Origin: Clavelina lepadiformis
Taxonomy: Eukaryota > Chordata > Ascidiacea > Aplousobranchia > Clavelinidae
DNA: 64,000 nucleotides
Direction: 5' to 3'
Assembly: GCF_947623445.1 (NCBI RefSeq)
Contig: NC_135247.1
Location: forward strand, 16,680,501 to 16,744,500
Below the pieces are notes generated by a model, which made no database searches, was not told the origin of the DNA, and saw only the letters and a list, made by a program, of their open reading frames with translations. This document shows positions 1 to 37,874 of this stretch, in pieces (positions within the stretch are counted from its first letter, which is position 1; the number at the start of each line of letters is the position of its first letter). Position numbers and translations under genes: made by a program.

Positions 1-736
1 CAACACATTGTTTCATAATCTCATCAAACAACTCGTCTAGACCGGGAAAATGCATGTAACAATAGGAAATCTATGAATAAAGGTGAAAAACCCGTAGGGT
101 CACCCTACACCCTACAAAGGGCCAAAAAACTCTACGAGTGGCAACCTTGACTGCAATACACATACTAAATTGGATAGTGACTAGATAGCGACTAGATAGT
201 GAATTAGAATTTTGACCTTTTGACGGCCAATTTGTCGCCGGTTAATTTGATCGCCGGCCAATTTATCGACGGTTAATTTTATCGCCGGCCAGTTTACGTC
301 ACGGTTAATTTGATCGCCGGCCAATTTGTTGCCGGTCAGTTGTCCACAACCAGTTGTCGCCGGCGAGTTTGTTCACGGCCATATGTCGTGATCCCTCACT
401 ATAGATAGCAAGTCGGTATAGCACGAACCATCGCCGGGATCAGGCAGCAAATCGTCTCCATTCCAAAGATGGAATAAAATTACTTGTAAATCATTCCTTG
501 TCAATTTCTTGTAATTCATGACGGAGAACACGTTCTCACGAGATACGTATTTACCGTTAACCAAACCGCTTTAGGCTGATTTACGTCATCGCCTATTTGG
601 ACAGCGTGGATGGGAATATTCCCAAATGTTCGTATGATTAGTTTATAACTCTTTTCATGTTTACCAAGCTGTTATTCCGTTTTGGAAGTCAAGCGCCACG
701 TCACTTATACCTTGAGCTTTTGGTTGAAAATCGACA
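1..736. other. 5' flank of window, no gene recognised
   Basis: No coding exon is supported here. The stretch holds an imperfect 11-bp tandem (gatagcgacta) near 173-202, a perfect odd palindrome (GTAGGGT-C-ACCCTAC) at 94-108 and the GC-rich minisatellite listed separately. A 63-codon minus-strand open frame at 373-564 overlaps the repeat edge and has no recognisable domain. Confidence 0.5.
222..386. repeat. Degenerate minisatellite, CGCCGG(C/T)(C/T)AATTT-type unit
   Basis: About nine imperfect units of 16-19 bp alternate between 'gccggccaattt' and 'gccggttaattt' forms, giving a higher-order unit of roughly 35 bp. The block stands out because CG-rich hexamers recur in otherwise AT-rich DNA. 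It lies about 350 bp upstream of the first EndoU gene. Confidence 0.75.
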
Positions 737-3420
737 ATGTTGAAGTTACTGGTATGTTCTATTTTAGCTATTGGACTTGGTAAGTGTTTGTGTTTGAAAT
801 GGATTTCTTATGAGTTATGGTAAATCGAAAAACAAAATTTTCAACAAGTTCCAATATTTCTGCTGTTTTCAGTGCACGCGCAAGGTTTATCTTCATGCGT
901 CGGAAGATGTGATGATTACGCTGATCATAGCTATACGTGTCAATGCAACACTTATTGCGATGGTTACCAAGATTGTTGCGATGACTACACAAGTGTTTGT
1001 CTTGGAGCAAGGTAAGGAATTTTTTTCGAGGATGTGTTCTAAGATGTAAGGGCATCGTTAAAAAGTGATTTGATGGAGATATTTTCCTTTAAAAATGAAA
1101 AGTGAAAATATCATGTATTCACATGTATTACGTTGCTGTTTTTGCGCCTAGTTAAACGTTTGTGCCTATAATGTTTATACAGTATAAATATTCTTGTAAG
1201 AAATGTAAATTTTTACAGCGACTCCTGTGTTGGTCGCTGTGGCGAAAGTCCCGATACAAGCAAGAGCTGTCAGTGCAACACGGTGTGTGACAATTACAAT
1301 GACTGCTGTGCCGATTACGTCTCTGAATGCCAAGCTTCAACGTGAGCATTTTTACTTAATTCCCTTGATTAAGCGCCCGAATCAGATTTAATTCGAAGTG
1401 CTCACTACTTCATTACAATTAGAATTCTGTCGAACTTCAACGTGTCCATTTTTATACTCAAGTTCCTTTGATCAAGCATCAAAATAAGATCTAGGTCTAA
1501 ATCAACAGCAAATCTTATCAACTACACGCATACAAGCCAGAAAACTTTTTATGATTTCTTTAATTACAGCTTTTACTTACAAATTTGTAGTAACTGGAAT
1601 CAAAACAAGCAGCTATGCGTTTACACTTTAAAATTTACTTAATTACAAACTTCTTTTTAAAAATTAAATGTTTCTGAACAGGGTAGTTCGTTAAAAGCTG
1701 TCAGTCAATTTACTAACACCACAAAACATTTGTTTAAGGTCTTTATGTGCTGGCCGTTGCGGCATTGGATACGATGCCACTCTTCCTTGCCAGTGCAACA
1801 CCCAGTGTCCCAATTACGGAAACTGCTGTACCGATTATTCTACGGAATGTGACACATCCGACGGAACAGGATGTTGTAAGTAGATAACATGATAACATTC
1901 TAAAACGTCACTCCCTTCTGTTTTATTTGAAGACCTGCTGGTGATTAGACGTGGGCAACTGCTGCGTCAACTCTAAACACGTAATAAGCTATTACAAGAT
2001 ATCTATATATTTGTAGCAAAACCAGGCGTCACGCAAGAAGAGATTTACGCCATTTCTCTTAGTTTATATGATCTCGATGTAAACCGAGCTACCGCCAGTG
2101 ACTACATAGTTGATATTCAATCTCCGACTAGTGACAGCTCATTGCAGGACAACTCGCCCTACAAGTAACTTATGGCATAGAAACATTCAACTACTTGTGA
2201 AAAGGTCTACTACTTGTGATCATTTAAAGTTGACGAATATTCTACTTTACTAGCTTTTTCACTTTCGTCAACGAGGACCTACTAAATCTACCAACTTACC
2301 AAGCCTTGATCAATCTTCTCGACAACTATGAAATGATTCAAGGAAAAGACGAGAATGTTGACCAGGTTGAAACGGATGAGATTTACACTTTCCTCAACGC
2401 ATTTATGAGCACCGAAATAGGAAAACAATTGTATACATTTCTCAGTAGTAAAGGTAAATGAGAACAGAACTGCCCATGTTGCTAAGTTTAGTAGAGTTTT
2501 TTTTTCATTCTAAACTTTTGACAAACCATGATAGAAAACAAAATATTAATTGCGTTAAACAACAGCTAAAGTTGAGATTAAAACAAGTATACTTCTTTTT
2601 GTAACTAACCCAAAAAGTGTAAAAGGCTTGTTAAAAGGTACAAAAAGCTTGTCTATATAGGGTGTCGTTTTTTTGCCAACAGGACTGGCAGGGTGTGAAG
2701 ACGAAGCTACTTTTATCGAAAACTTAAAGAAAATGTGGTTTGATTTGTACAGCAGACAAAACAATGCCATGGATACCAGCGGGTATGTTGTTCTACACCA
2801 TGCAAGCGCTTGCTTTGATAAAGAAACCTTCTCTCATGTTTGGTTGCATTTTCAGATTTGAACACGTATTTGTTGGTGAAATCAAGACCGACATTGTGTC
2901 CGGTTTTCACAACTGGGTTCAGTTTTACCTTCAAGAACAAGCAAAGAACTTGAATTACTTCGGTTACACTGGAACTGAACAGGTGAATGAAAATAAGCTT
3001 ACCGTAAAAAATGGTAACGTTGATTGGGTAATCATCAGTCTCTTTCAATACTGCCATACTGTTAAACGTCGTTTTTGTCCTAGCCCAATTTGTACGGGCT
3101 ACACTTTGAGTGGTACGGGTACATGAAGGGACTTTCGGGGAGTTCAGTTGGCTCAAGTCCAGAATACGATTTCGCGATCTTTACCTTGTGTCATTTGACA
3201 CGACCTGGCTCGGTGTAAGTGTTTGTATACTTTGAAGCGTTATCGATACTGGCGCACATGCTCTACCACGCACTCACGCTTCATTATTTACAGATGTAAC
3301 GTTTTGCTGAGGAGCGACGATAACGTGGAGGTAAACCGCAGCATCCAGACATGGACCTGGACTAAGACTACTCCTGGAGACGGACTGAAATACGTGGCCT
3401 CTGCCTATTTCATTCTCTAA
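737..3420 (+). CDS. ENDOU: Secreted triple-somatomedin-B EndoU ribonuclease (ENDOU-like)
   Basis: Ten exons: 737-779, 873-1011, 1219-1341, 1739-1875, 2017-2164, 2254-2453, 2683-2782, 2856-2982, 3084-3214, 3294-3420; 424 aa. All introns are GT-AG and every phase closes. Exon 1 encodes a hydrophobic signal peptide ([14 protein letters not shown]). Exons 2, 3 and 4 each encode one SMB domain with the eight-cysteine pattern ending CCxDY(x)2-3C. Exons 5-10 encode the EndoU domain (about residues 148-424). Catalytic-type residues are present: His300 in FEHVFVGE, His315 in GFHNW and the probable catalytic Lys354 in YGYMKG. EndoU enzymes cleave RNA at uridylates in a metal-dependent way, leaving 2',3'-cyclic phosphate ends. 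Vertebrate ENDOU also joins SMB to EndoU, so this is the most orthodox member of the local cluster. It is convergent with the next gene. UTRs were not determined. Confidence 0.93.
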
Positions 3421-5028: not shown

Positions 5029-8000
5029 TTACTGTAGAATGAAAAAAGCTGTTCCAACATATCGCAAGTTAAAACGTGGGATCTTGTTTTTCCAGGTGTA
5101 GGTTTGAATTTCTCTTTTAACTGGAACTCCATCTGCATCACGAAGGAGAACCGCACAACTGAGAACAAAGAGGTTTTTTGAGGGGTTTACACAGTAGTAT
5201 AGTTTCGATTTGAACGTAACTTTAGGTCACGACACTTACACTGAATCGGGCCTGGTCACGTGACAAAGTGTATAAACGGCCAATTCGTACAGTGGGCTGG
5301 GACCAATTACAATTCCCGCCAACCCTTTCAATGCGTTGTGCCATTCAAAATGTAGATCATATAAGTTGGGCTAGAAATGCATGATAGAATTACTGATTAT
5401 ATAATGGTTGTTGTTATTGTTGAAAACTGGCTTTCACTTAACTGTACATTACTCTAGCAGCATATTGTAAACAAATACGTTTGCATGAAACCACATTAAG
5501 CCTACCTCTTTTGTTCTAACGTAGCCAAAATAGTTCAAACTTCCAATTTTCTCTTGCAAATAAAACTGAATCCAGTTGTGAAATCCAGTCACTGAAACTC
5601 CACTGCTTCTAAGTTCTCCCACAAAAACATGCTCAAAACTGTAACAGTAAAAATCTTGTAATATAAATTAATAAAACGAAAATTGATTTCAGTCAGACTC
5701 AAATTTCAATTGTAGAAATTTAAGTAACGACATAGCGCAGTATCTAGTAAAAATATTATTCAACATTTGCAAGTGCTTGGAGAGGATCTCTCTATATTCA
5801 ACCATTCAATGTCAACACGGATGAAATAACGTGATCATAGCAGTTTTTACAGTAGGTTGCACTCATAGCACGCGGTAAAATCAACAAGTATAACCATGCA
5901 TAGCCTGTACGGGCTCACCCGCTTGTATCCAACGCGTTGTTTCGTCTCGTGAACATCTCAAACCACATTATTCGGATAAATTCCTTAAAGAGAGTTTTCC
6001 CTTCACATCCAGCTAAGCCTACATATATAGGATGGAGTAGCATCATCAACTTGCATTGACGGGTCAAGTCTATACTCAGGATTTAAATCTTCTTACAACG
6101 ACAAAAGAAGTTTTTCAGTTAGACAGTATATTTGAGCATGAAAAATCATGAAGTAAAAACATCAGGCGGAAAGTTTTTCCGGAGTTAAAAATATTTAGTA
6201 GTTTGTAAAAATTACTGTTTATTTTCAGCAAGTTATTAGGCGGTCTACACCACGTCAATACCAAAAAAAAACATTTTACAGCAAATTAAAGATAATTTCA
6301 ACCTGCTTTGGCCAGAAACTCATACAAACGAACACCAAGTCTGCTGTCAATGAAGTAGTTAAGAAACCTCTCGTTTTCCCTCATCTCCTCATTCGAGATT
6401 GTTTCGTTAATTCCCTGGGTTTTTTCGTAATTATCCAACAAGTTTATGAATGCCCGGTATATTGGTTTGTTCATGACACGCTCATTAAGAAAAGTGAAGA
6501 ACCTGCGAAAAACCTTAAATTTTAAGATCTGTTTAGAAGTTTAAGTTGAAGTTCTATCTTTTCTTTGCCCCCTTCTTTTTTTTCAGTAATGAAATCTTCC
6601 AACCTTTCCTCAGAACTGTCCACTCTTGATTTGTCGTCGGTCTGATTTTGTAGGTTTATCATGAACTCATTCGAGTTGATTCTGTTATCATCAAGATCGT
6701 ATAAGTCGAGCGAAAAAGAACGAATCTCGCTATCTCGAACGCCTGTAGTCGCAGGATCAACAAAATTTAAGAACATAACATCAAAGCCCATCTATGGTTA
6801 CGATATACTTACGATGTAAGAAATATACCGTGTATTCACTTTTAAAGTAATGCACAGCAGGTGTGGGTATACTCTTGCTGACGGCCTAAAATAGGCATTA
6901 CTAGGTATATTCTTGCTGAAGGCCTGTATTTTACTTTAAATATATACATCAATTCAAGTTATGCAGAACCTTGCATTGGTAACTTACCATTCACCACACT
7001 CATGCACAATTTTTCGTGGTCGTCACAGCAATCACCAAACCTGGTGCATGCAAAATTGCACTGACATGTCTGGTTGCTATCGAAGGAAGCAGTACATCTT
7101 CCAGCGCACGAATTCCCTGTGCCACATAATGAGTATATATCCTACAGTTTTAATCTAATGTATACGGACAAACAGATAAACATATATTTAAACCAAATAA
7201 TGTGCCTGTGTATAGACCAATAGCCCATAGCAAGCTGTACGCACATACACGTCTAATCATAAATGAATGTTGTTACTTGGTGTAAAATTAATTTGATGCA
7301 GCACAAAAGTATGTATTCGATGTATATATTACATTACGATTGTTTGTATACGATGCATTTTCAAAGACCAGACCGCAAAAGCGCATAGCCTTATAAAAAT
7401 TGTAGCTACTTTTTTGTCGAACGATAACCTTTTTCAACGGATTACAGCATAATTCAAGCCTAATACATCTCTTTTTAAATCTTTTTGGGTTTTTGACGCA
7501 ACAGCAAAACTAAAATCATATCGCTAGGGGCAAAAAAAGAAAATGACATGAAACTAAAACATCCACCTGAAAGAGTTAGCAAGTCTGTGTTACATAAATC
7601 AGAATCACAGCAACTTCTGCAAATAGAATTTGCGTCATTGTTGTTGCATTGGATCGAACCTTCATTAACGTTCTGAAAACAACCATATTTTGTGGGCAAC
7701 TTACCAAGTCAAAGAAAAATGTTTGAGCAGGAAAAAACGCAAAACAAAAAGCCTAGAAGAAAACGTTGACTTGGCTGCAATAATGTTTCGTAAATATCAT
7801 ACTAAGTTTACCTGCGCTTGGTTGCTGTGGCACGCCTCGCGTTGCTTACAACGTTTTGTTACCAACGTTTTGCAACGATGTACCCGCACTTCGTTTTGGC
7901 ATACCTACACCAGATAGAAATAAACGAACCAATTGAAGTAAACTACTGTACATGTAGTTTACTCAAATATATAGCAGTATATCAAATTCAATAGAATTTG

Positions 8001-8868
8001 TTTCATGAAACCTCGTTATCAGCACACGTCTCATTCCGTCCGTTGGAAAGGCAATCTTCGTTGCCATTTGCCGCATCGCAAGTCCAGCACACCGTTGCTG
8101 TATAAAAGAAAGATATGTTTGAACAATAATTATAGAGAAGCAAATGATGACGTTAAACCAATCTTATTATTATTCAGCTACAGGCATATTTCATTGCCAT
8201 TCGTCGCAGTACTTTTTCTAACCTCTTTGAAAACTTAATAAGACATTTGCAACAGGCTGTCATTATTTCACAGGAAAACATCAGTTGTTTGAAGCTATTC
8301 GTCGCATTTTCTTGTTAACCTAACATGTTGTAACATAGATATCTAAACCTAACTTAAGTATTTCTTTTAATATACTGTAAATCTAACTTGTAATAGTTTC
8401 CGAATAACTAAAGTCAAAATTTTGAATCCTCCTTACCTATTTTTTTTCACTAACCTAGCCGCCTATCTTTAACAAAGCGTTGCGTGAAAAAACTTACGGT
8501 GAAATATTCACTTTCTTTGTCATATATAGCAACGTATATCAGAAATAACTTGGGATCTTTGTTCATCGTGCTCATTTAATTTTAAAATTTAGACGATGAA
8601 GGGTCGCTTGGGTGCAATTGCTTAGCGCATAGTTTTTCCTCTAAGAATTTGACCTGTAAAGCCGGTTTGACGAGTTCCAAGATTGAGGTATAACACCTAA
8701 TGACATAATTATGTAACAATGAGATATTGACAACGCTGTGGGCAACATAAATCGATAGGAACCTCACAAAGTTGTAAATCATAGGACCGAGTTTCGAAAT
8801 TTGTCAAAATACTTACCAAGCGCTTTGCTTGTGAACATGTACAGGCAAAGAAGAAGATAATATTTCAT
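5029..8868 (-). CDS. LU (Ly6/uPAR-like) + SMB + EndoU secreted ribonuclease
   Basis: Eleven exons in transcript order: 8868-8817, 8097-8012, 7904-7812, 7672-7567, 7116-6988, 6742-6604, 6502-6303, 6018-5919, 5638-5506, 5370-5240, 5158-5029; 432 aa. Exon 1 is a signal peptide ([17 protein letters not shown]); an in-frame ATG four codons upstream (8880) is an alternative start. Exons 2-4 (residues 18-112) form a cysteine-rich module with 13 Cys, starting CWTC and ending in the three-finger signature CCDSDLCN. Exon 5 is one SMB domain (residues about 115-151). Exons 6-11 are EndoU, with His305 (FEHVFVGE), His322 (GFHNW) and Lys361 (HNALKG). EndoU exon lengths 200, 100, 133 and 131 match paralogues. 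Weak spots are three donors: exon 2 (gtttca), exon 6 (gttgga) and exon 7 (gttgaa). Each is supported by phase, and those of exons 6 and 7 also by alignment. The LU module implies extracellular protein contacts. Confidence 0.86.
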
Positions 8869-17677: not shown

Positions 17678-19201
17678 TTTGTGATAGAAAGCTTTTAAAT
17701 TTAAGATTTCAGATTCACGAATTTTAGATCAAATAACCCTTAATCCGGTAAACTTGCTAAGATCAAGAAAAGAAAATTCAAAATATTTTATCCTCCGTTG
17801 CTATTTTTCGCATGATTAACTTTTTAAGACATTTTGCCTCACCGTAAGGTATGCAGTAAAACATAAATCATCTAAACTGTAGCTTTGTAACTATATCCTA
17901 TAAAAACCTGACTACAAAAGCCTTGACAATTTGAGACTCCATACCAACTTTTCATTTGTTGTCTATTTTCTGAAAGTCTGCATGTGGGTACGTATATTAT
18001 CCTATTGGTTATGGTGTTCTCCAGCACAAACTGAAATATATTTATGCGCTGGGTCTTGACTCTTGATATAACTTTACGAAGGAAGTGTTGTAAAAGCGAA
18101 AGAAGAGTGCATGGAAACAATTTATGCAAACATGTATTGATTGTAAACACATATAGACATAAAAGGCTCTTCCTTATTAGGTTTAGGTCGACCAACGAAG
18201 CACACGAGCTACAGTACTTCCTTGTATTCTAATTATGACCCGACTTTTAAAGCAGCGTCTTGTTTGCAAGTTGCTCGCATGCAAGGGTTGTGTTTGAAGC
18301 ACCAATTACTTTTAGGTCCCTTGTAATAATTGGAATAGTAATACGGACCAACAAAAATATTTTTGTTACACTTTGAAAAGTTAGAAGATATTAGCTATAT
18401 TTAGTGCGCTGATTTCAATAATGTTGTCAGATTTTTCAATCATGTCACATTTTTTGTTACTACCACGCATGCATTTACCGAAAAGTTGATATTGGATATC
18501 TTTTTTATACCGGTTGAGAACGTACAATATATTGTTAAACAGCATACAACCGGCATTGATTAATTATTACACTAAATAAAATTATCTTGCCATTATATAA
18601 CAACAAAATATTCTTTCAAGCTAAACAAATTTCTGTTGAAAGCAACTGGCTCTTTTCGTGGTGTAAGATCAGCAGAACCCTTCTTCTATCACATTGGCAT
18701 CAGACCGGCCAAGATGACGGAGGATATGATATTTATCAACGATATTCTTCTAATGGAGTCATTCTCGTTGTTCAGCCCTTATATTATCAAGATTAGGTTG
18801 AACAAATCTCATTATAAATGCAAAAAAGCTCTTTAAAAGACATAAGAGACCCTAATCTTTTATACACTTTCAGCATTTCATATACTGTTTCAGCATGTTA
18901 GTTGTTTATCTATTTTTCTAAAATTTTGGTAAACATTCATTTAAAACCTTCCCAAGCTGCAAGATGACTAAGGTATTAAGCCATCCTTGAAATCGATGAT
19001 CTAAATCACACTGTTTTCACCTTAAAACTTGCAAAAATGACCCTTTTTAGTTTTTTCCAATTCTTTTAACACAAAATCAGTCTTCTAAATACTTAAATCT
19101 CTTTCCACGTGAGTAGTATAGTGCTGCCGCCCCAGGACTCTTACCGCCATCCACCGCCAACCGACACCATCCACCGGCGCCATCTGCCGGCGAGTGACGT
19201 T
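17678..19201. other. Intergenic region upstream of short EndoU copy B
   Basis: No gene recognised. Open frames at 18044-18232 and 18587-18836 lack family resemblance. The last 75 bp (from about 19127) are GC-rich with imperfect 'ccgccatccaccg' and 'gccggcg' repeats that run into the foldback element and may belong to it. Confidence 0.4.
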
Positions 19202-19951
19202 GCCGGCGACTCGAGTTTTCGCACCACGCGTAAAGAAATGTACAAGTGATGAGTTACTCGCATGTGTGATATCATAGTGAAACTTGTTATAGTGAAAAAT
19301 ATTTGGTTTTGTGGATGTGTAATGAAAAAGTTAGTTACGTCATAGTTTCAAAAGCATAATACCGTGTGTTGCACTACGCCTACAAGAAAAGTGAAATAGT
19401 GAAACTTGTTATTTCTAAAGTGAAATATCTTGGGTTTTGTCGACCTTGGATATACAGGTAATGAAAGAATCAGTTATGTCATAGTTTGTATGCGATAGAA
19501 AAAGAAACGTGATGTCATAGTCATAGTGAAACTTGTTATTTCTAAAGTGAAATATCTTTGGTTTTGTGGACATACAAGTAATGAAAAAGTTAGTTACGTC
19601 ATAGTTTCAGAAGCATAATACCGTGTGAACCACTTGGACTCATCTGGAGTCTAGAGAATGCGATCATCATATTTACACTAACATGACCTGAACCTTAAGT
19701 GTCATAGTGAAACTTGTTATTTCTAAAAGGTGAAAATCTTTGGTTTTGTGGATATACAAGTAATAAAACAGTTAGTTACGTCATATTTTCAGAAGCATAC
19801 GTCATAGTTGAATACATTGCATCTTGTTATGAATTGCAACTTGTGTTGAAATAAGCCGGATATATAATCTCTCACGTTTGAGAACGCTGGTGTCGGGAAG
19901 TCGCTAGCATCCGGATATGTATTTTGTTTAAGTGACAGGTCAAAAGGGAAA

Positions 19952-20103
19952 TGATTGCGCGATCGTGGTGCTGCGAGGTCATTCGAGTGCGTTGCAAGCA
20001 ATCCATTCGCGCCCAGCTGTGAGAAAAGATATTATTGCGCAATTGTGGTGTTGTGAGGTCATTGGAGTGCGTTGCAAGCAATTCATTTGCGCCCAGCTGT
20101 GAT
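19952..20103. repeat. Tandem pair of ~82-bp units inside the foldback element
   Basis: Two adjacent copies share 'gtgcgttgcaagcaat' and 'gcgcccagctgtga' at the same spacing, with about 10-15% difference. They are moderately GC-rich compared with the AT-rich surroundings. Confidence 0.75.
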
Positions 20104-20354
20104 TTGTTTCCAGAATGTATGTCAGATTTTAGAGACATATTGGATAAATAATTATGTTAACTACTGTTTCATATTCTAAAAGAACCTCTATTCCCTTATA
20201 TGTTTTAGATGGTTTGTGTATTAGATGTGAAAAAAGCACTGAAATGTATTATTTTATATGGATAGGCTTGGTTGTGTATTCGTTATTGAGATATGGTAAT
20301 GAACTTTGTTTCATTAAAAAAATAAAAATATTTTTTCTAAACACCTTTTGGTGT

Positions 20355-20828
20355 GATACAATTTATAATTTAATCTTTGTGTGATATGTTTATCAATTTA
20401 AACGTTAAAACCAAGGAAAAAGTGCACAACAGTCATAAATCAATATGAAACGTATCATGGTTTATCGTGTTTATACCATAAAGTGTTAAAATTTTGTCAA
20501 ATTGAATCCTAAATGAATAGTAAAAGTGTCACGGTTTATCGTGTTTACACCATAACATGTTAAAATTTTGTCAAATTAACAAATTCTATACACCCAAGTA
20601 CAAAATGAAACAGTTCAAGATGTTCAAATTTTTTAAAAATAAACATATTTTTCCTAAACACTATTTGGTATGATACAATTTATAATTTAATCTTTGTGTT
20701 ATATTTTTATCAATTTAAACGTTAAAACCAAGGAAAAAGTGTACAACAGATATAAATCAATATGAAACGTATCACGGTTTATCGTGTTTACACCATAAAG
20801 TGTTTAAATTTTGTCAAATCGAATCCAA
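20355..20828. repeat. Direct repeats of ~155 bp in the foldback core
   Basis: A segment starting 'gatacaatttataattta' near 20355 recurs near 20669 at about 95% identity by eye. A third partial copy around 20525-20578 carries only the 'acggtttatcgtgttta' part. The spacing of about 313 bp suggests tandem duplication of a larger unit. Confidence 0.75.
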
Positions 20829-21420
20829 TTAAATTGATATAAATCTATTTGAATTTAATTTTTACAATTTTCTTTTAAATTAAGGGCTTAAAGCAGGTAG
20901 AAAGTAATTATATGAGTAAGCCATGTGAATAAGTAACCCCAGAAGTAACCAGGGTACAAATAGATAACCTATAAAGAAAACCTTAACAAAAGTGATAGTT
21001 GTGAACTGTTTTATCACTTTCTTGTCAACTCTTCTCTTGATATACACTGTTTTCAATCTGTAAGCAATAAAACTTATTGATAATTTCAACAAAGCAAAAA
21101 CCGGTTTATCTATAGGCCGTTTTACAATACAAATTTAACCATGAAAAATTTATGTAAGCTTTGTTATTGTCCTTGATACCACTTCGAGGTATCCACAAAA
21201 CCAAAGATTTTTCACTTTCGAAGTAACAAGTTTCACTATTACTATGACATCACTTTTCTTTTTCTATCGCATACAAACTATGACATAACTGATTCTTTCA
21301 TTACATACATTTTAATACATATCCACAAAACCAAAGATGTTTCACTATGATGTCACACATGCGAAAAACTCATCACTTGTACATTTCTTTACTCGTGGTG
21401 TGAAAACTCAAGTCGCCGGC

Positions 21421-24257
21421 GCCGCCAACGGATGCAAAACGTTTCCTCATAGAGCTGTATCATTACAGTAACGCAGTTGTTTGTTATGTCATAAAGCCCC
21501 GGATACCGTAGGTTGTAGTGGACTCGTGACGACAAAAGAAATATAGCAGTGAATACTTCCACATCTAGTGGATTCTTCTGGTAGGTGTTATTCCATTAGC
21601 CTACGACATTTCAGCGTTTCAAGTGTCTGATAACTGCGTAGGCTACATGGAAAGTTATCATGATAACTTTGGAATACTAACTTTGTTAATTAAGCATTTA
21701 AGCACCACTAGAGATATTGTCTTATAATGTGATTACAATCGGTTATAAATCCTTAGAACGACTCTCCAGGGTGGGCAAGAACGCAGCTATAGGCTGCATG
21801 CCTTTATTTAGCTCTCTCACGTCTAGCATGGGGCGCCGATCCCCATAACGTTTTGGGAGAATGAAAAAACCTGAAATTTAAGTAGATTTTTTTGTAAAGT
21901 TATTTTTATTAGTCCACAGTTTTTTAATTTCTACATTCGCAATTTTTTTGTCGTGAAATGTTGCAGTTTGCTTGCTGCTGAAGGGCTTACTTGTGAATAA
22001 AATCCCGCATCTTGCTCCAACTTGTTTTCTTTTTACCACATTAGGATTTGAGAATTTTGCTAAGAGATTTTAGTCCTTATCACGGAGCTGTTTGCATTGC
22101 ACACTCCCCAATAATAATAAGCGGCTCTATATGATTGTTATTTTGTGAATTCGCAGGTAGGAGGCCTGTAGGCTATTAGTAAATTACACTGACACTAATT
22201 GCACTAGAATATGAAAGAATCAACAAACATTATGAACATGCACACAAGAAACCACGCTGGAGGAATGAAACATGTGGCAAAGGGAAATCTTTGTCTGTTA
22301 ATAAGCAAATATTCTTTACCTCATAATATATGCTAGGCACAAAATGCATAAACTGAAAGAAAAAAGTTAAGCGGTTCTGTTACATTCGCTAGGATCGCTA
22401 TAAAAGTATAAACAATTCTAATATATGTTTCATATCCTCTATACGTATTTTATCTAAGGACTAAGTACGCAAGTGCCAACCTGTTATGCCGGAAATAAAA
22501 ATATGTTTGCATTATTGATTTTTCAGTTTTAGTTTAGCGATAATGTGTTCTCTATTACAACTTCTGGCGTGGATTGTAGCCATGTGGCTTCCTCCTCACG
22601 AATGGTGAAGTACAGTCCATTCGTGAGTAGACCTACTTTCGTAATAATGTATTTAAAGCCGATATATAGGCCTACTCCGAGTGCAAAATTAGTGAACATA
22701 ATCTTTCAGTCTTTCATCCAAACTTAAGCGAAAACTAATTCACTGGGAGTTTACTTACACTTAACATATTATTCTACGCAAGAGGCGGAAATTAGAGACC
22801 GCTGTTGGACTGCAATCGATTTCATTCCATTCACGACATTACAATACTGAGTATATGCTGTTATAATCATTATCCTCGAGCTGAGGAAGCTTTTGAACTA
22901 CTTTAACCATGTGATGAATCCACAGCGCTCGAGTCACGGTTGCCGACCTGGCTTTTGTGCAATTTCAGATAAATATATTTATCAATTGTGTTTTGATCTT
23001 TTTATATCATATTCCCCAAATTTGGTACTGCCAGAATTACTGAACAAGAGCGTCTTTAACGACCTACCCAAGGATATTGTAGCGGTAGCGTCACTGCGTA
23101 TATGCAACAAGGGGCACATTTGTGCAAGCCCAGCGCTCTAAACATTCCGCTGCCGAGCTGTCATCGTGATATTACCGGTGACAAGTTAGTTGCCGGTTCC
23201 CTGGTTATTATTTATCATCTGAAAATAGAAGTCCACACTGCCTAAATGTAGGTGACGCGTAGACTAACCAACGTTTGTGTGAATAAGTGAACCGAAAAAA
23301 AAATAGCTAAGGAACCTAAAACTGATAGCGTTGACCGTGGTTAGTTCATAAAATTGTCGGTTTGCCGTGCTACATCATTACAACAACCACTACATTCCGC
23401 TATTCTTTAAGGTTTAAAGTCACCGTAAGTGCAGATTTCAAACTGTGCACATTCACCGAAGACACAGGATATCCAAAGAAAAGTGCAAGTCCACAGCAGA
23501 ATATTTGCATTGAGCAACGTACATTTGTGCTGGAATAGACACAGCGAAGTGAATGCAAATTTGATTTTGATAAAATGAGTAACGAACGTATTTGCAGTAC
23601 TTTGAATGAACTATTATGCTGTAACTTTCTCGAACCAGTCACCATGCAAAGACACATGAAACAGTTCGCATAAAACGCTTTATGACAAAACAAACCATAA
23701 TAGGACTAACTCAGGACTTTGGTTAAACATTTTAAATTCCGCCTGAAGTAGGTCGCTCGAAAAACAATTGGCGGGGATAAACAAACAGGCTAGGTCCATC
23801 GTATGGACATTATATTACAAAGCAATCTATACTCAAGTAGCAATAAAAGCGAGTAATATGGATGCATAGTTTGTAAATGTGGGCTGATCCAAGCCACTAA
23901 TGAAGGTAAAGTATATTAAGATCTTAATAAGATGAAAGCGTAATAAATTGCAATTATTCCACCGATAATAAAGTACATGGTGGCTTGGTTGAAACTTGAG
24001 CGAAGTTATTTTAATTAAAGCAAGAAGTTGACGGCCGTGGACGCTCTAAAATGCCACCGGTATCGTTTCAGAAAAATAATCGCCATAAAAGCCAACTACC
24101 TGCTAAAATTTACCAACTTGTGCTACGTCTTACAAAATAGAACTCGAAAATTAGGTAACGTCAACATCACATCATTATATACTACGTCATGTAAACATGA
24201 TGTCATGCTATCTGGGGAATTTACTAAGTTGCCATGATCAGTAAGAACAAGTGATGT
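21421..24257. other. Intergenic region between foldback element and DHTKD1
   Basis: No gene supported. It contains the perfect hairpin listed at 22595-22627. Open frames at 22545-22727, 22893-23141, 23400-23693 and 24028-24237 have no recognisable domain or splice context. Confidence 0.45.
22595..22627. repeat. Perfect 11-bp inverted repeat (hairpin)
   Basis: CTCACGAATGG and its exact complement CCATTCGTGAG are separated by an 11-nt loop. No flanking gene depends on it, so function is unknown. Confidence 0.7.
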
Positions 24258-30200: not shown

Positions 30201-33200
30201 AATAGGACGTAGAAGTGAGAAAAAACATGCCATCCATGTAAAAAACCTAAAATTAACTACCATTTTTGGAATTTTAAGATGAGTTCAGTTAAACATCTAT
30301 GAAACAAAAACGTAAGAAAATTTTGCATGAAAAAAAAAAGAGCTGGTTAAAAGCAATAAAACTTGGAGGAGCATTTTAAAGCTAAGTGACTGTTGATTTA
30401 AAATGCCTTCGATTCTACACCTGTTCACAATTGCAATGCTGTTCAATCATGGTCTGGGTAAGTTTCCAACTGTTTTATGTTTGTAATTTTGAAGTATCAG
30501 TTAATAATGTTTTCTAAAGTTGTTTAGTGCTGTGTAAGTAAAAATGGAGGCAAGATACGTTAGAAATATCTTCTAACACACTTCGTATTGCATTAAAACA
30601 TATAAACCAATTAGATGCACACTAGTTGGAAATAGATTAAAACAAAACAAAACACCTAAAAAATAAAAAGGAACTGTATTTGAACCGAAAAACTTTTAAC
30701 GGCTAAAAATAATTCACTTTGTTAATTTTCAGTTTCCTAGTAGCTGTAAGTTACTAATTCTTGTTTAACCACAGGTCAAAAAAGGGTAAGCATGTATGGG
30801 GACATGGTCTACACATTCTCCCATTTTAACCAAAATCAAGCCAAAGCATCCAATCTATGCAAGACACATTACAATGGCAAACTTGCAACAATCCCTGATG
30901 CAAATATTCAAATGCATTTAGAAAACCAGCTGCAGGATATATACAGGTGCCTATGACCAAATATTGGTACAAAAATAGTAACAAAAGCCCTTGAAGTATG
31001 AAAGGCCCAAGGAAAACAGAAAATTGTGAAATAAATGGTTTTAATACAAAGTTTCTAACAGTTAAGTAGATGTGTCCACGAAACTCTCAATGCCAAGCGT
31101 CATACTGTTTCTGTTACTCAGCACTTCTGACTACTGGATTGGACTAAAGCATATGAATGACAGTGAGTGGAAATGGTCCAACATGGAAAAACCAAATTAC
31201 ACCAACTGGCAGGACCATAATGGTGACAACAAATGTGCAGCAATATCAAGAACAGGAAGTTGGAAGTCTATCAGGTGCAACGCTAGCTTGCCCTATGCAT
31301 GTGAAATACCACGTAAGTTAATTAAGTTTTGGACAGATTTTATTTCTGTTTGGCTTTAAGAATTAGGGATGCGATTTCAAAACAAACCACTTTGGCAATT
31401 TCAGCAGCATTGATAACCAACGTGATTTTTCATATTCTTATGTAATTTTGCAATTGCACTTTCAGTGTATGAAAGATGTTTTCGAAATTTTTTTTGTCTG
31501 TAAAGTTGTTTGGTGCAAAACTTTGTATTCATTACGACTTGTTTTAGTGGCATCGATGCCTGTTAACAATAAAACAATGGCAAAATACATCTTCACTGAA
31601 GTCAAACTGCGTTATCAAGAGGCGGCAGCAGTTTGCGCAGCACGAGGAATGAAACTGGCGCCGATAGAAACTCCAGAGCAGCAGCAGCTCATCAATCACG
31701 CAACTTTCACAAACGACACGATGAGAAATTACTATTTTGAGAAACCAAATCAAAATGAATCTGACAACAACACTGCGGGTTTCTCAAACTGGGCACCGGG
31801 TTTTTCACAGCCGATCCTTGATACCATGTGTACGTACCTAGCCATAGGAAAAAATGAAACCGGACAGTGGAAAACAGGGCAATGCTTTGTCCAGCGAAGA
31901 TTCATTTGCATTCTGGGTAAGTAAATGTAAGTGAAATTAACAGCTCAAAACGTGATTAAAATGTATTTACGGCATAGTATTGAGTCTGAAAATATAAAGC
32001 ATATTATCCAAAATACACCGATCACTGTGTGAGCTTGCTTGCAATTTTAGCAGCAAATTAACAGCCATTGATGTGCTGTTAAGTTTTCGATAATGAAGTT
32101 AACAGAAAGTTTTGTTTTGTGTTTTGTTAGTTAACAGAAAAAATCAAAACCAAACATTTTTTGTTAAAAATCACGATTTATGAATTATAAAGAATCTTAT
32201 TTGCTTCTCTTGTAGAAGTTGATGCCATGAAAACACAAACAATGAGCACATGGACCACCGGTAAGAAAAGAAAACAAATTCATGAAATTAACCATGCATT
32301 TAATGTAGGTCTAACATCATAAATGGTTGAATCTTATGCGATAATTGTGATTCCAGAAAAAATGGATGTCACAGATGAAATGATGTCTCCCTCAACATTA
32401 AACACGACATTAGCTGGCAAAGGAAAACCAGAAGACTGTAAGTTGAACTGAGACAGCTTCTGTGCAGATGTAAATCTGCTCATACCAGCATTTCTGATTT
32501 CTGAACCTAAACTTTCAGACAAAATGGAATCCACAACCGAAGGGGGAAATTCTGCCAACATAATAAAGATGACCACTTATATGGCCATGGTTGCATTCAT
32601 TGCCTGCTTAATGCATGTTGTGTAAAAGACTAAAGATAGACTTGAACTAACATTAGAATTTTGAAGCATTGATCAACATCTTACAGTTTTCTTCAGAAAC
32701 AAATGTATATGACATGTGTACGGCGCTCATACTTGTGTAATAAGTAATAACTGCTGCTACGTCAATTATATTCTCGTTGTCGTTTAAATTTTGGATCATA
32801 CCAAATGTAGGTCAAAAATCTTGTAAAATAAAGGTAATAATCAACATCATAACAACTTTAGAAAACCCCTTTGAAGGGTTTTCTAACTTTGGCATCTTTC
32901 AGCACATTCATTTAACTTTAATTGCATGAGATATCTTGTATTTCAAGTTTTGTTCTTCTTGTTGTGCTGTATTATTTTTTTCCCAGTGCAAAAATTTTAG
33001 TATAATTGCTATAATGAATAATCCAACTTTACAAGAATTGTAATTCCATGATCACATCCTCATTTTACCTTGTCCAGTGAATGAAGCATCCCCGTGCATG
33101 AGCAAACAAACAGCTTTGCTTCCTTTGTGCGGTCCTTCACCCAATGTCTGCTGCCGGCCACGACACTTCCCTGCAGCGACCGGATTCACTGCCTGAATAA

Positions 33201-36279: not shown

Positions 36280-37179
36280 TTACGGTAAAATTCTCTGCAA
36301 CCACGAAAGCACTACTTCACAAACTGATGCAATAACAACATCATCGTCCAAACCTTTCACTTTTAAACTGTGTGATGCATTATCTAAACTAGCGATACAA
36401 CCAAGACCAGTGGGTGTGTTGATCTTAAACAAACAGGTTGAATTCAAGTCAGATTTGTTCTTCCACTGTGTCAATTTACAACTTACCTGATTAGAAAATG
36501 CCGTTGTCAGAATGGTTTCAAGAGTTGGTAAATCACACATATCATCGTTTGTGCCAGATAAAAATATTACGGGAACATTTGCTTCAAAAATCGGTTGAGA
36601 ACGCAGCTCTTTTCCACCCACTGGATGCAGCGGATAAGACAGACATATCACCCCTAAAGTATTGCAGGATGGAGGGTGCACGGCATGGCAGTTTTCACAC
36701 AAATCAGGTTTTGGCTTAACATCACATTTGCTGTTTCTCTCAGAATGTTTTCTTTTTCTTTTTGCAGGTTGCAACGTTTGCTCTGAATGTTTGTCCGAAA
36801 TTTCACTTTTAGGCTGATTTGGTGACTTTGAGATGCAGTTAGCGGCCATAAGAGCAGCACGGCTCCCCATTGATCTTCCAGCAAATACGCATCCAGTTAA
36901 TGAAGAATATTTCAAACAAACATGTCTTACTACTTCAACATATGCTCTCGTTCGGTATTTTATGTTCAACCCCTTGCATGTGAATCGAGCACACATATAA
37001 CCAGATTCTGCAAGCTTGATGGACAGTGCTACCAGTTGGTGAAAGTCTTTATCTCCACCAGCACCATGCGTTAAAAACACACAGATTTTTGGACTGATGC
37101 TTTCCCAGTTAGAAGGCACTTCAATGGTCATTGGCAGGTATTTTTTGTCTATTGAAACCTCAGTATCAATAACAACCAT
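36280..37179 (-). CDS. TEX30: TEX30-like alpha/beta hydrolase
   Basis: One intronless frame of 299 aa. It has THGAGGD (37-43), the strongly conserved RFTCKGLN segment (65-72), the nucleophile elbow GRSMGSRAA with Ser103, the SGTNDDMCD acid region (208-216) and His270 in NASHSLKVKG. These match TEX30 and the related KANSL3-type hydrolase family; human TEX30 is about 227 aa. The extra length is mainly an insert at about 116-172 containing KRKRK (140-144) and a C-x2-C-H...H...C cluster (161-172) that might bind metal. The triad is complete, but no substrate is established for the family. It lies 134 bp upstream of DHTKD1 on the same strand, which suggests a two-gene operon. Confidence 0.9.
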   Translation of the reverse strand: MVVIDTEVSIDKKYLPMTIEVPSNWESISPKICVFLTHGAGGDKDFHQLVALSIKLAESGYMCARFTCKGLNIKYRTRAYVEVVRHVCLKYSSLTGCVFAGRSMGSRAALMAANCISKSPNQPKSEISDKHSEQTLQPAKRKRKHSERNSKCDVKPKPDLCENCHAVHPPSCNTLGVICLSYPLHPVGGKELRSQPIFEANVPVIFLSGTNDDMCDLPTLETILTTAFSNQVSCKLTQWKNKSDLNSTCLFKINTPTGLGCIASLDNASHSLKVKGLDDDVVIASVCEVVLSWLQRILP

Positions 37180-37874
37180 TTTTCAAAAACAGACCTTGCT
37201 TCCCTGTGCTCTAAATTTGACCACATATGTGACAATTTCGACCTTAACACTTGACAGTGACAATTTTTAACATAAATTCAAAGAAGCAATTGTAACTTTA
37301 TTATTGCGTTGCAATCAGGGAACGTATACAAAATTGGTCTCTTAAACTTTTGCACATTTGAAACCTGAAAGAGGAGTTATGAGGTACAGTAATAGAAAAG
37401 AAGTTGTGTTGGGTCGCACAAAAAAAACTTCAAGCCTTTGAATCGAGCACTTTAAATCAAGACAATTTTCGCCTTTGGCGACGGCGTCGATTTTGGCGAG
37501 AATCCAACACAGCGCTAACTAACAATGGTTACCCTAGATTTTTTACGATTTACTCGCCACTTGGTGGTGCAAATAAAACAAGGTTCCAACGAGCCCTCCG
37601 TTGCGTGTGGTCGTGTGGGTATATGTTACCAAAGGTGTAAGTATAGCCTATAATTGGTAGCGATGGAGATCACAGATCATTTTTAAGGGACTCAAGCTTA
37701 CAAGTTTTAATTTTATGCGTAAGTTACGTGATTTTTCAACTTCAGTAAACTGACGGCGCTGAAGTAGTTATTTCGGACAATTGGAAGACAAAACTAAGCA
37801 AAAAACTGTAGCATTCTATTTGAAGCTAGTTAATGAAAATACGGGAAATAAATTAACATAACTTACTGTTATCG

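What the first reader, a model, noticed from the sequence alone, without database searches (positions are those of the whole stretch)
5029..8868. LU-SMB-EndoU: a three-module secreted ribonuclease architecture
The reconstructed 432-aa protein joins a Ly6/uPAR-type cysteine-rich module ending CCDSDLCN, one somatomedin-B domain and a catalytically complete EndoU domain. SMB+EndoU is the known ENDOU layout; I am not aware of an LU domain attached to it. LU domains usually bind proteins at cell surfaces, so this could be a targeted extracellular RNase or an immune effector. It is the best candidate here for something undescribed.
Basis: partly seen in the sequence, partly recalled or inferred. Interest (0 to 1): 0.82.

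Follow-up and report, generated by a model that had tools for sequence, protein, structure and literature searches.

The report
Sea-squirt RNase with added Ly6 domain
A sea-squirt gene appears to join a Ly6-type protein-binding module to a secreted RNA-cutting enzyme, and related copies of that module sit beside other kinds of secreted-protein domains in the same genome, which suggests a module thought not to move between proteins has done so here.

Summary
The window lies on chromosome 8 of what is almost certainly the ascidian Clavelina lepadiformis. Eleven minus-strand exons (8868-5029) give a 432-aa frame: signal peptide, LU domain of LYPD1/LYPD6 type, one somatomedin-B domain, and EndoU with its His-His-Lys triad. 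The LU exon set enters and leaves in phase 1, so it can be added or skipped in frame. The LU-SMB splice is inferred from weak sites; no transcript was available.

The EndoU search found exons of five genes, all within about 250 kb of this chromosome. At the phase-1 intron after the signal exon they carry nothing (two genes), one SMB, three SMBs, or LU+SMB; LU was matched only in this one.

In 8 of 9 hand-picked LU loci, sushi, EGF or SMB domains lie beside the LU in the same orientation; in two places LU exons and the neighbour share one open frame. A 2019 review judged LU probably not a bona fide mobile module; here it looks like one. Most likely this is a secreted RNase with an added docking module. 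Docking and any immune role are untested. New variant of a known kind.

The parts
8817..8868 (-). exon 1: start codon and signal-peptide-like stretch, ends in phase 1
   Evidence: signal peptide judged by eye, no predictor run; donor ranks 23 of 26
8012..8097 (-). exon 2: first part of the LU domain (phase 1 to 0)
   Evidence: same intron place as in LU paralogues; its donor is weak (rank 0 of 26)
7812..7904 (-). exon 3: middle of the LU domain (phase 0 to 0)
7567..7672 (-). exon 4: last part of the LU domain, CCDSDLCN (phase 0 to 1)
   Evidence: donor rank 4 of 26
6988..7116 (-). exon 5: somatomedin-B domain with 8 cysteines (phase 1 to 1)
   Evidence: acceptor rank 4 of 26
5029..6742 (-). 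exons 6-11: EndoU (XendoU) domain, stop codon at 5029-5031; exons 6604-6742, 6303-6502, 5919-6018, 5506-5638, 5240-5370, 5029-5158
   Evidence: His-His-Lys aligned with human ENDOU (9ftw)
737..3420 (+). neighbour G1: signal exon, three SMB, EndoU, 424 aa
11631..13378 (+). neighbour G3: signal exon then EndoU, no SMB or LU in the model, 280 aa
16194..17677 (-). neighbour G4: signal exon then EndoU, no SMB or LU in the model

Best explanation
A secreted EndoU ribonuclease gained a Ly6/uPAR (LU) module by exon shuffling into the phase-1 intron after its signal exon. SHOWN by sequence: the exons, an unbroken 432-aa frame, an LU set flanked by phase-1 sites, intact EndoU triad residues, LU modules of the same family beside other domains elsewhere in the genome, and EndoU neighbours that differ in what lies at the same phase-1 intron. 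INFERRED: exons 1-11 form one mRNA; the protein is exported; EndoU cuts single-stranded RNA at U in the calcium-rich outside, as known eukaryotic EndoUs do; the LU module is a docking finger that binds a partner protein on a cell or in the matrix and so holds the nuclease in place. Because exons 2-4 can be skipped in frame, one gene could yield a docked and a free enzyme.
For: Unbroken frame and matching phases, with and without LU. XendoU and SMB far over cut-off. Triad and the calcium-relay glutamate align with human ENDOU (residues named in PMC11275989). LU matches LYPD1. Its internal introns lie where those of LU paralogues lie, and in six of nine loci a phase-1 GT follows the LU at about the place of the exon-4 donor (by eye). 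LU-SMB in one open frame at C8:226.5 kb. G3 and G4 lack SMB and LU, G5 has one SMB, G1 three, each starting in phase 1 after the signal exon. LU loops are generally used for protein contacts (passage of PMC6600238).
Against: No transcript. Exon-4 donor and exon-5 acceptor are weak; the exon-2 and exon-7 donors rank below all 26 training sites. The whole protein gives no LU hit in Pfam and the LU part stays under cut-off. Exon 4 stays open for about 30 codons beyond its donor, ending in a partly hydrophobic stretch. The LU part has an odd number of cysteines, 13. Two neighbours do without LU and SMB. No evidence of any kind on the LU partner, on secretion or on activity.
Confidence: 0.55

Rival explanations
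1. The three-domain protein is made, but the LU module is only a disulfide-rich spacer or a passenger of shuffling without a binding role; the enzyme works like any other secreted EndoU.
For: Two neighbouring EndoU genes have neither LU nor SMB. The extra, thirteenth cysteine could mean relaxed constraint.
Against: The other 12 LU cysteines are kept in the pattern of LYPD1, and identity of the LU part to paralogues (37-47%) is not far below that of its EndoU part to the neighbours (37-53%); suggestive only.
Confidence: 0.25
2. Two products, never fused: exons 1-4 read on into a hydrophobic tail and give a short LU protein, perhaps membrane-anchored, while exons 1 and 5-11 give an ordinary SMB-EndoU protein (or EndoU has an unseen start exon).
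For: Exon 4 stays open about 30 codons past the donor with a partly hydrophobic tail. Exon 1 to exon 5 is in frame. LU-SMB splice sites are weak. Single LU proteins with a GPI tail in the last exon are the usual kind (PMC6600238 passages).
Against: The tail is broken by APSD and ends in charged residues, unlike a usual GPI signal (by eye). Several paralogues have a phase-1 donor at the same place. Seven ATG-led frames of at least 10 aa between exons 4 and 5 were listed (those of exon 4's own tail included) and none looks like a signal exon with a fitting donor and acceptor (by eye).
Confidence: 0.14
3. The gene is silent or decaying, so the architecture is a relic.
For: The related gene G5 has an in-frame stop codon in the exon that matches G1's exon 9.
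Against: All eleven exons of this gene are open, triad and domain cysteines are kept.
Confidence: 0.06

Closest known systems
ENDOU / XendoU family (human ENDOU, PDB 9ftw; Xenopus XendoU, 2c1w)
   Same: EndoU domain over full length, His-His-Lys triad and relay glutamate; SMB in front
   Different: Mammalian EndoUs have two SMB domains (PMC11275989 passage); here one SMB and an LU module
LYPD1 / LYPD6 / LYPD6B (LU domain proteins)
   Same: Cysteine pattern and sequence of the LU part
   Different: The known ones are single LU proteins, mostly GPI-anchored (recalled); here LU is the first module of an enzyme and no anchor is in the model
LU-SMB-LU-SMB stretch of the same genome (C8:226-228 kb, locus L055)
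   Same: LU followed by SMB; for the second pair, LU exons and SMB lie in one open frame
   Different: No EndoU match there; its second SMB is under the Pfam cut-off (19.5 to 22.0 against 23.1 bits)
G1 of the same window (three SMB + EndoU)
   Same: Same exon plan; EndoU 53% identical
   Different: Three SMB and no LU

Membership tests
XendoU/EndoU ribonucleases | XendoU domain over the curated cut-off | tested here: met
   252.1 bits against 32.3, positions 1-261 of 262
XendoU/EndoU ribonucleases | catalytic His-His-Lys and relay Glu (human H285, H300, K343, E290) | tested here: met
   alignment with 9ftw; residues named in PMC11275989
XendoU/EndoU ribonucleases | calcium-dependent cleavage of RNA at U | not testable with these tools
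   needs protein
mammalian-type ENDOU layout | signal peptide, two SMB domains, EndoU | tested here: not met
   one SMB and an additional LU module
Somatomedin-B domain | Pfam cut-off and eight cysteines | tested here: met
   37.6 bits against 23.1; eight cysteines counted in exon 5
LU (Ly6/uPAR) domain | ten-cysteine pattern ending CCxxxxCN | tested here: met
   all ten present, plus two shared with LYPD1 and one unique
LU (Ly6/uPAR) domain | curated Pfam cut-off (a recognition threshold, not a defining trait) | tested here: not met
   UPAR_LY6_2 21.0 against 31.5 bits; no UPAR_LY6 hit
LU (Ly6/uPAR) domain | three-finger fold | not tested
mobile phase 1-1 module | flanked by phase-1 introns | tested here: met
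   this gene; 8 of 10 LU starts displayed have a phase-1 AG directly before them (by eye)
mobile phase 1-1 module | found with several unrelated domains | tested here: inconclusive
   sushi, EGF or SMB beside LU in 8 of 9 hand-picked loci, two of these only by sub-threshold sushi matches; joined in one frame in 2 places; elsewhere the splice is not proven

The most novel reading that the evidence does not exclude
In this ascidian the LYPD1-type LU domain has become a true mobile phase 1-1 module, shuffled into sushi, EGF, SMB and EndoU proteins, and the LU-SMB-EndoU protein is a ribonuclease that its LU finger docks on a specific surface, perhaps to clear foreign or self RNA in body fluid or tunic, with docked and free forms made by skipping the LU cassette.
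Probability: 0.3. Interest if true: 0.72.

Novelty: new variant of a known kind. Interest (0 to 1): 0.5.

Why it matters
[quoted passage not shown] This genome shows LU beside sushi, EGF, SMB and EndoU domains, in phase 1-1 exon sets and in two places in one open frame with the neighbour domain. If borne out by transcripts, that conclusion would not hold for tunicates. The EndoU cluster shows different module contents at one intron, a compact case of exon shuffling, and it raises a testable idea of surface-docked secreted RNases.

Tried and rejected
Acceptor at 7141 (phase 0): scores -0.6 and does not fit the phase of exon 1 or exon 4. Higher-scoring AGs at 7252, 7234 and 7205 lie beyond the in-frame TAG just before 7141 and so cannot serve the SMB frame. 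A chance cysteine run: rejected, since paralogues share cysteines, other residues and intron places. LU at the other EndoU genes: none of the 53 LU matches lies at them; the places are lower bounds, as the tool says. Donor of the LU copy: the tree of 14 modules is unresolved (10 of 11 inner branches open). First ends of exons 6 and 8 were replaced after comparison with G1. Sushi and EGF_CA searches of the genome scored only 150 of 1412 and 150 of 1485 candidates, so they were of little use for counting. Species check by cellulose synthase: not completed.

Literature: held 0 papers; others (2 listed of 2; 20 of 61; 10 of 307; 15 of 515; 10 of 10; 12 of 104) showed, by title and start of abstract, no paper on an LU-EndoU protein; the unlisted ones were not seen. 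Papers seen: PMC10884593 passages; PMC6600238 passages and section 5; PMC6337849 passages; PMC11275989, a preprint, passages and section 25; all others as listings only.

Full report
IDENTITY OF THE WINDOW. The window is C8:16,680,501-16,744,500 of a genome of 209,060,895 bases in 95 contigs. Contig lengths seen, C1 28.784, C3 25.735, C4 25.071, C5 24.617, C6 20.772, C7 20.449, C8 19.510 and C9 15.726 Mb, agree within 0.01 Mb with the chromosome table of Clavelina lepadiformis kaClaLepa1 (passages of PMC10884593). The published totals are 210.1 Mb in 102 scaffolds, slightly more than held here. I take the organism to be this light-bulb sea squirt.

THE GENE. Eleven exons on the minus strand from 8868 to 5029 give a 432-aa frame. 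Exon 1 codes a signal-peptide-like start (by eye) and ends in phase 1. Exons 2-4 code LU with phases 1-0, 0-0, 0-1. Exon 5 codes SMB (1-1). Exons 6-11 code EndoU. Joining exon 1 to exon 5 also keeps the frame and gives a plain SMB-EndoU protein. Pfam on the whole protein: XendoU 252.1 bits, Somatomedin_B 37.6 bits, no LU family at E up to 1; on the LU part alone UPAR_LY6_2 21.0 bits, under its cut-off of 31.5. The LU part matches solved LYPD1 (E 0.0013) and LYPD6B (0.004), and LYPD6 weakly (0.18, 0.21).

CATALYTIC STATE. Against human ENDOU (9ftw, E 1.8e-52) and Xenopus XendoU (2c1w, E 1.5e-36) two histidines, a lysine and the glutamate five residues after the first histidine align. H285, H300, K343 and E290 are named as triad and calcium relay of human EndoU in PMC11275989. 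G1, G3 and G4 keep the triad too (alignment). Activity is inferred.

IS THE LU PART IN THE SAME GENE? For: (a) the LU set begins and ends in phase 1, as the signal exon ends and the SMB exon begins; (b) LU modules elsewhere have introns at the same internal places, and in six of nine loci a phase-1 GT follows the LU at about the place of the exon-4 donor (by eye); (c) the SMB frame is closed by a TAG just before 7141, so only AGs at 7141 and 7116 can serve, and only 7116 fits the phase of exons 1 and 4 (scores -0.6 and 3.3); (d) no convincing other start exon lies between exons 4 and 5. Against: exon-4 donor and exon-5 acceptor rank 4 of 26 each, and 13% of 264 GTs and 21% of 208 AGs in the region do as well or better. 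The exon-2 and exon-7 donors rank below all 26 training sites, although homologous introns back them (G1 has the exon-7 one; LU paralogues the exon-2 one). Exon 4 stays open about 30 codons beyond its donor. No transcript was seen. I put the fused architecture at about 0.8.

THE LU FAMILY. A genome search with this LU gave 53 exon matches at E up to 10, three of them this gene's own; a search with another member gave 50 at E up to 0.01. PF00021 itself gave 3, none over cut-off. Fourteen modules, hand-picked and joined by eye, share 11 invariant cysteines and one nearly invariant. Scanned singly at E up to 0.1, 10 of 14 match Toxin_TOLIP, 5 UPAR_LY6_2 and 3 UPAR_LY6. Their profile finds LYPD1 at E 2.8e-9. 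A further cysteine pair comes and goes together: 11 of the 13 other members have CxCCC and a late cysteine after CN, while two others (L039, L055) and the protein of the finding have neither, like LYPD1 (my count). The finding's LU has one more cysteine of its own, making 13.

LU AS A MOBILE MODULE. Nine 10-kb loci, hand-picked from the places, were read. In eight of nine, other extracellular domains lie in the same orientation; in L060 none was seen. Pfam on chosen segments: over or at cut-off in L055 (SMB 33.7 bits), L056 (EGF_CA 42.6), L058 (Sushi 46.6), L059 (Sushi 20.7, exactly the cut-off), L061 (Sushi 37.9) and L063 (Sushi 34.0); under cut-off in L057 (15.1 and 17.1) and L062 (18.8). 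In two places no splice has to be guessed: at C8:226,561 downwards the later LU exons and an SMB lie in one open frame (that SMB scores 19.5 to 22.0 against 23.1), and at C7:15,320,606 downwards an EGF domain runs into the first LU part. Of ten LU starts displayed, eight have an AG in phase 1 directly before (L056 second LU, L057-L063), and two have no such intron (L055 second LU, L056 first LU) (by eye). A phase-1 GT after the LU is seen in L056 (first LU), L057, L058, L059, L061 and L062 (by eye); the rest are unclear or run on. Neighbourhood in one orientation does not prove one gene where an intron lies between.

THE ENDOU CLUSTER. The XendoU search gave 15 exon matches, which I assign to five genes between 16.681 and 16.929 Mb of C8. 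G3 and G4 have signal exon then EndoU; G5 has signal, one SMB, EndoU, with an in-frame stop in the exon matching G1's exon 9; G1 has three SMBs; the gene of the finding has LU and SMB. In all five the signal exon ends, and the next module begins, in phase 1. EndoU identity to this gene: 53% (G1), 49% (part of G5), 45% over 213 residues (G3), 37% (G4). The LU gain is therefore probably not recent, but the LU tree is unresolved.

HOW IT MOST LIKELY WORKS. If the protein is made, a secreted, calcium-dependent, U-preferring RNase is the likely activity (inferred from the family). The LU finger as a docking module on a protein partner is my best guess (about even odds): LU loops are generally used for protein contacts (PMC6600238 passage). 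An immune or RNA-clearing role is speculation.

NOVELTY. Ten paper searches were made (for the genome only), with no LU-EndoU paper in the listings. This is weak evidence, because animal protein databases could not be searched. The review's view of LU as at most a proto-module makes the LU mosaics of this genome of wider interest than the single gene. Interest 0.5: surprising to LU and EndoU specialists, built from known parts, awaiting transcripts.

Noticed in passing
7567-8097, LU of the finding: Odd number of cysteines (13): RVHRC adds one that none of the other 13 aligned LU modules has at that place; it could be free or link two chains.
   Followed up: partly
L054, C8:16,927,700-16,929,372 (minus): Fifth EndoU gene G5 (one SMB) has an in-frame TGA in the exon matching G1's exon 9, so it may be a pseudogene or carry a nonsense allele.
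   Followed up: partly
19195-21427: Long inverted repeats, e.g. 113 nt 96% complementary (19458-19570 and 21192-21304) and 94 nt 88% (19195-19288 and 21334-21427): looks like a non-autonomous transposon.
   Followed up: no
C1:22.95-22.98 Mb (loci L009, L011-L013, L017, L018, L020, L023, L029, L030): Ten of the 22 SMB matches of the genome search cluster here, where no EndoU match was found.
   Followed up: no
31367-31924 (+): 185-aa open frame whose end reads like a C-type-lectin domain (by eye and recall).
   Followed up: no
36280-37182 (-): 300-aa open frame that looks like an alpha/beta hydrolase of the KANSL3/TEX30 kind (recalled, not tested).
   Followed up: no
181-400 (+): Short repeated units of the type gccggccaatttgtcgccgg, read by eye.
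   Followed up: no
L056, C7:15.312-15.322 Mb: A long array of EGF domains interrupted by at least two LU modules on one strand.
   Followed up: partly
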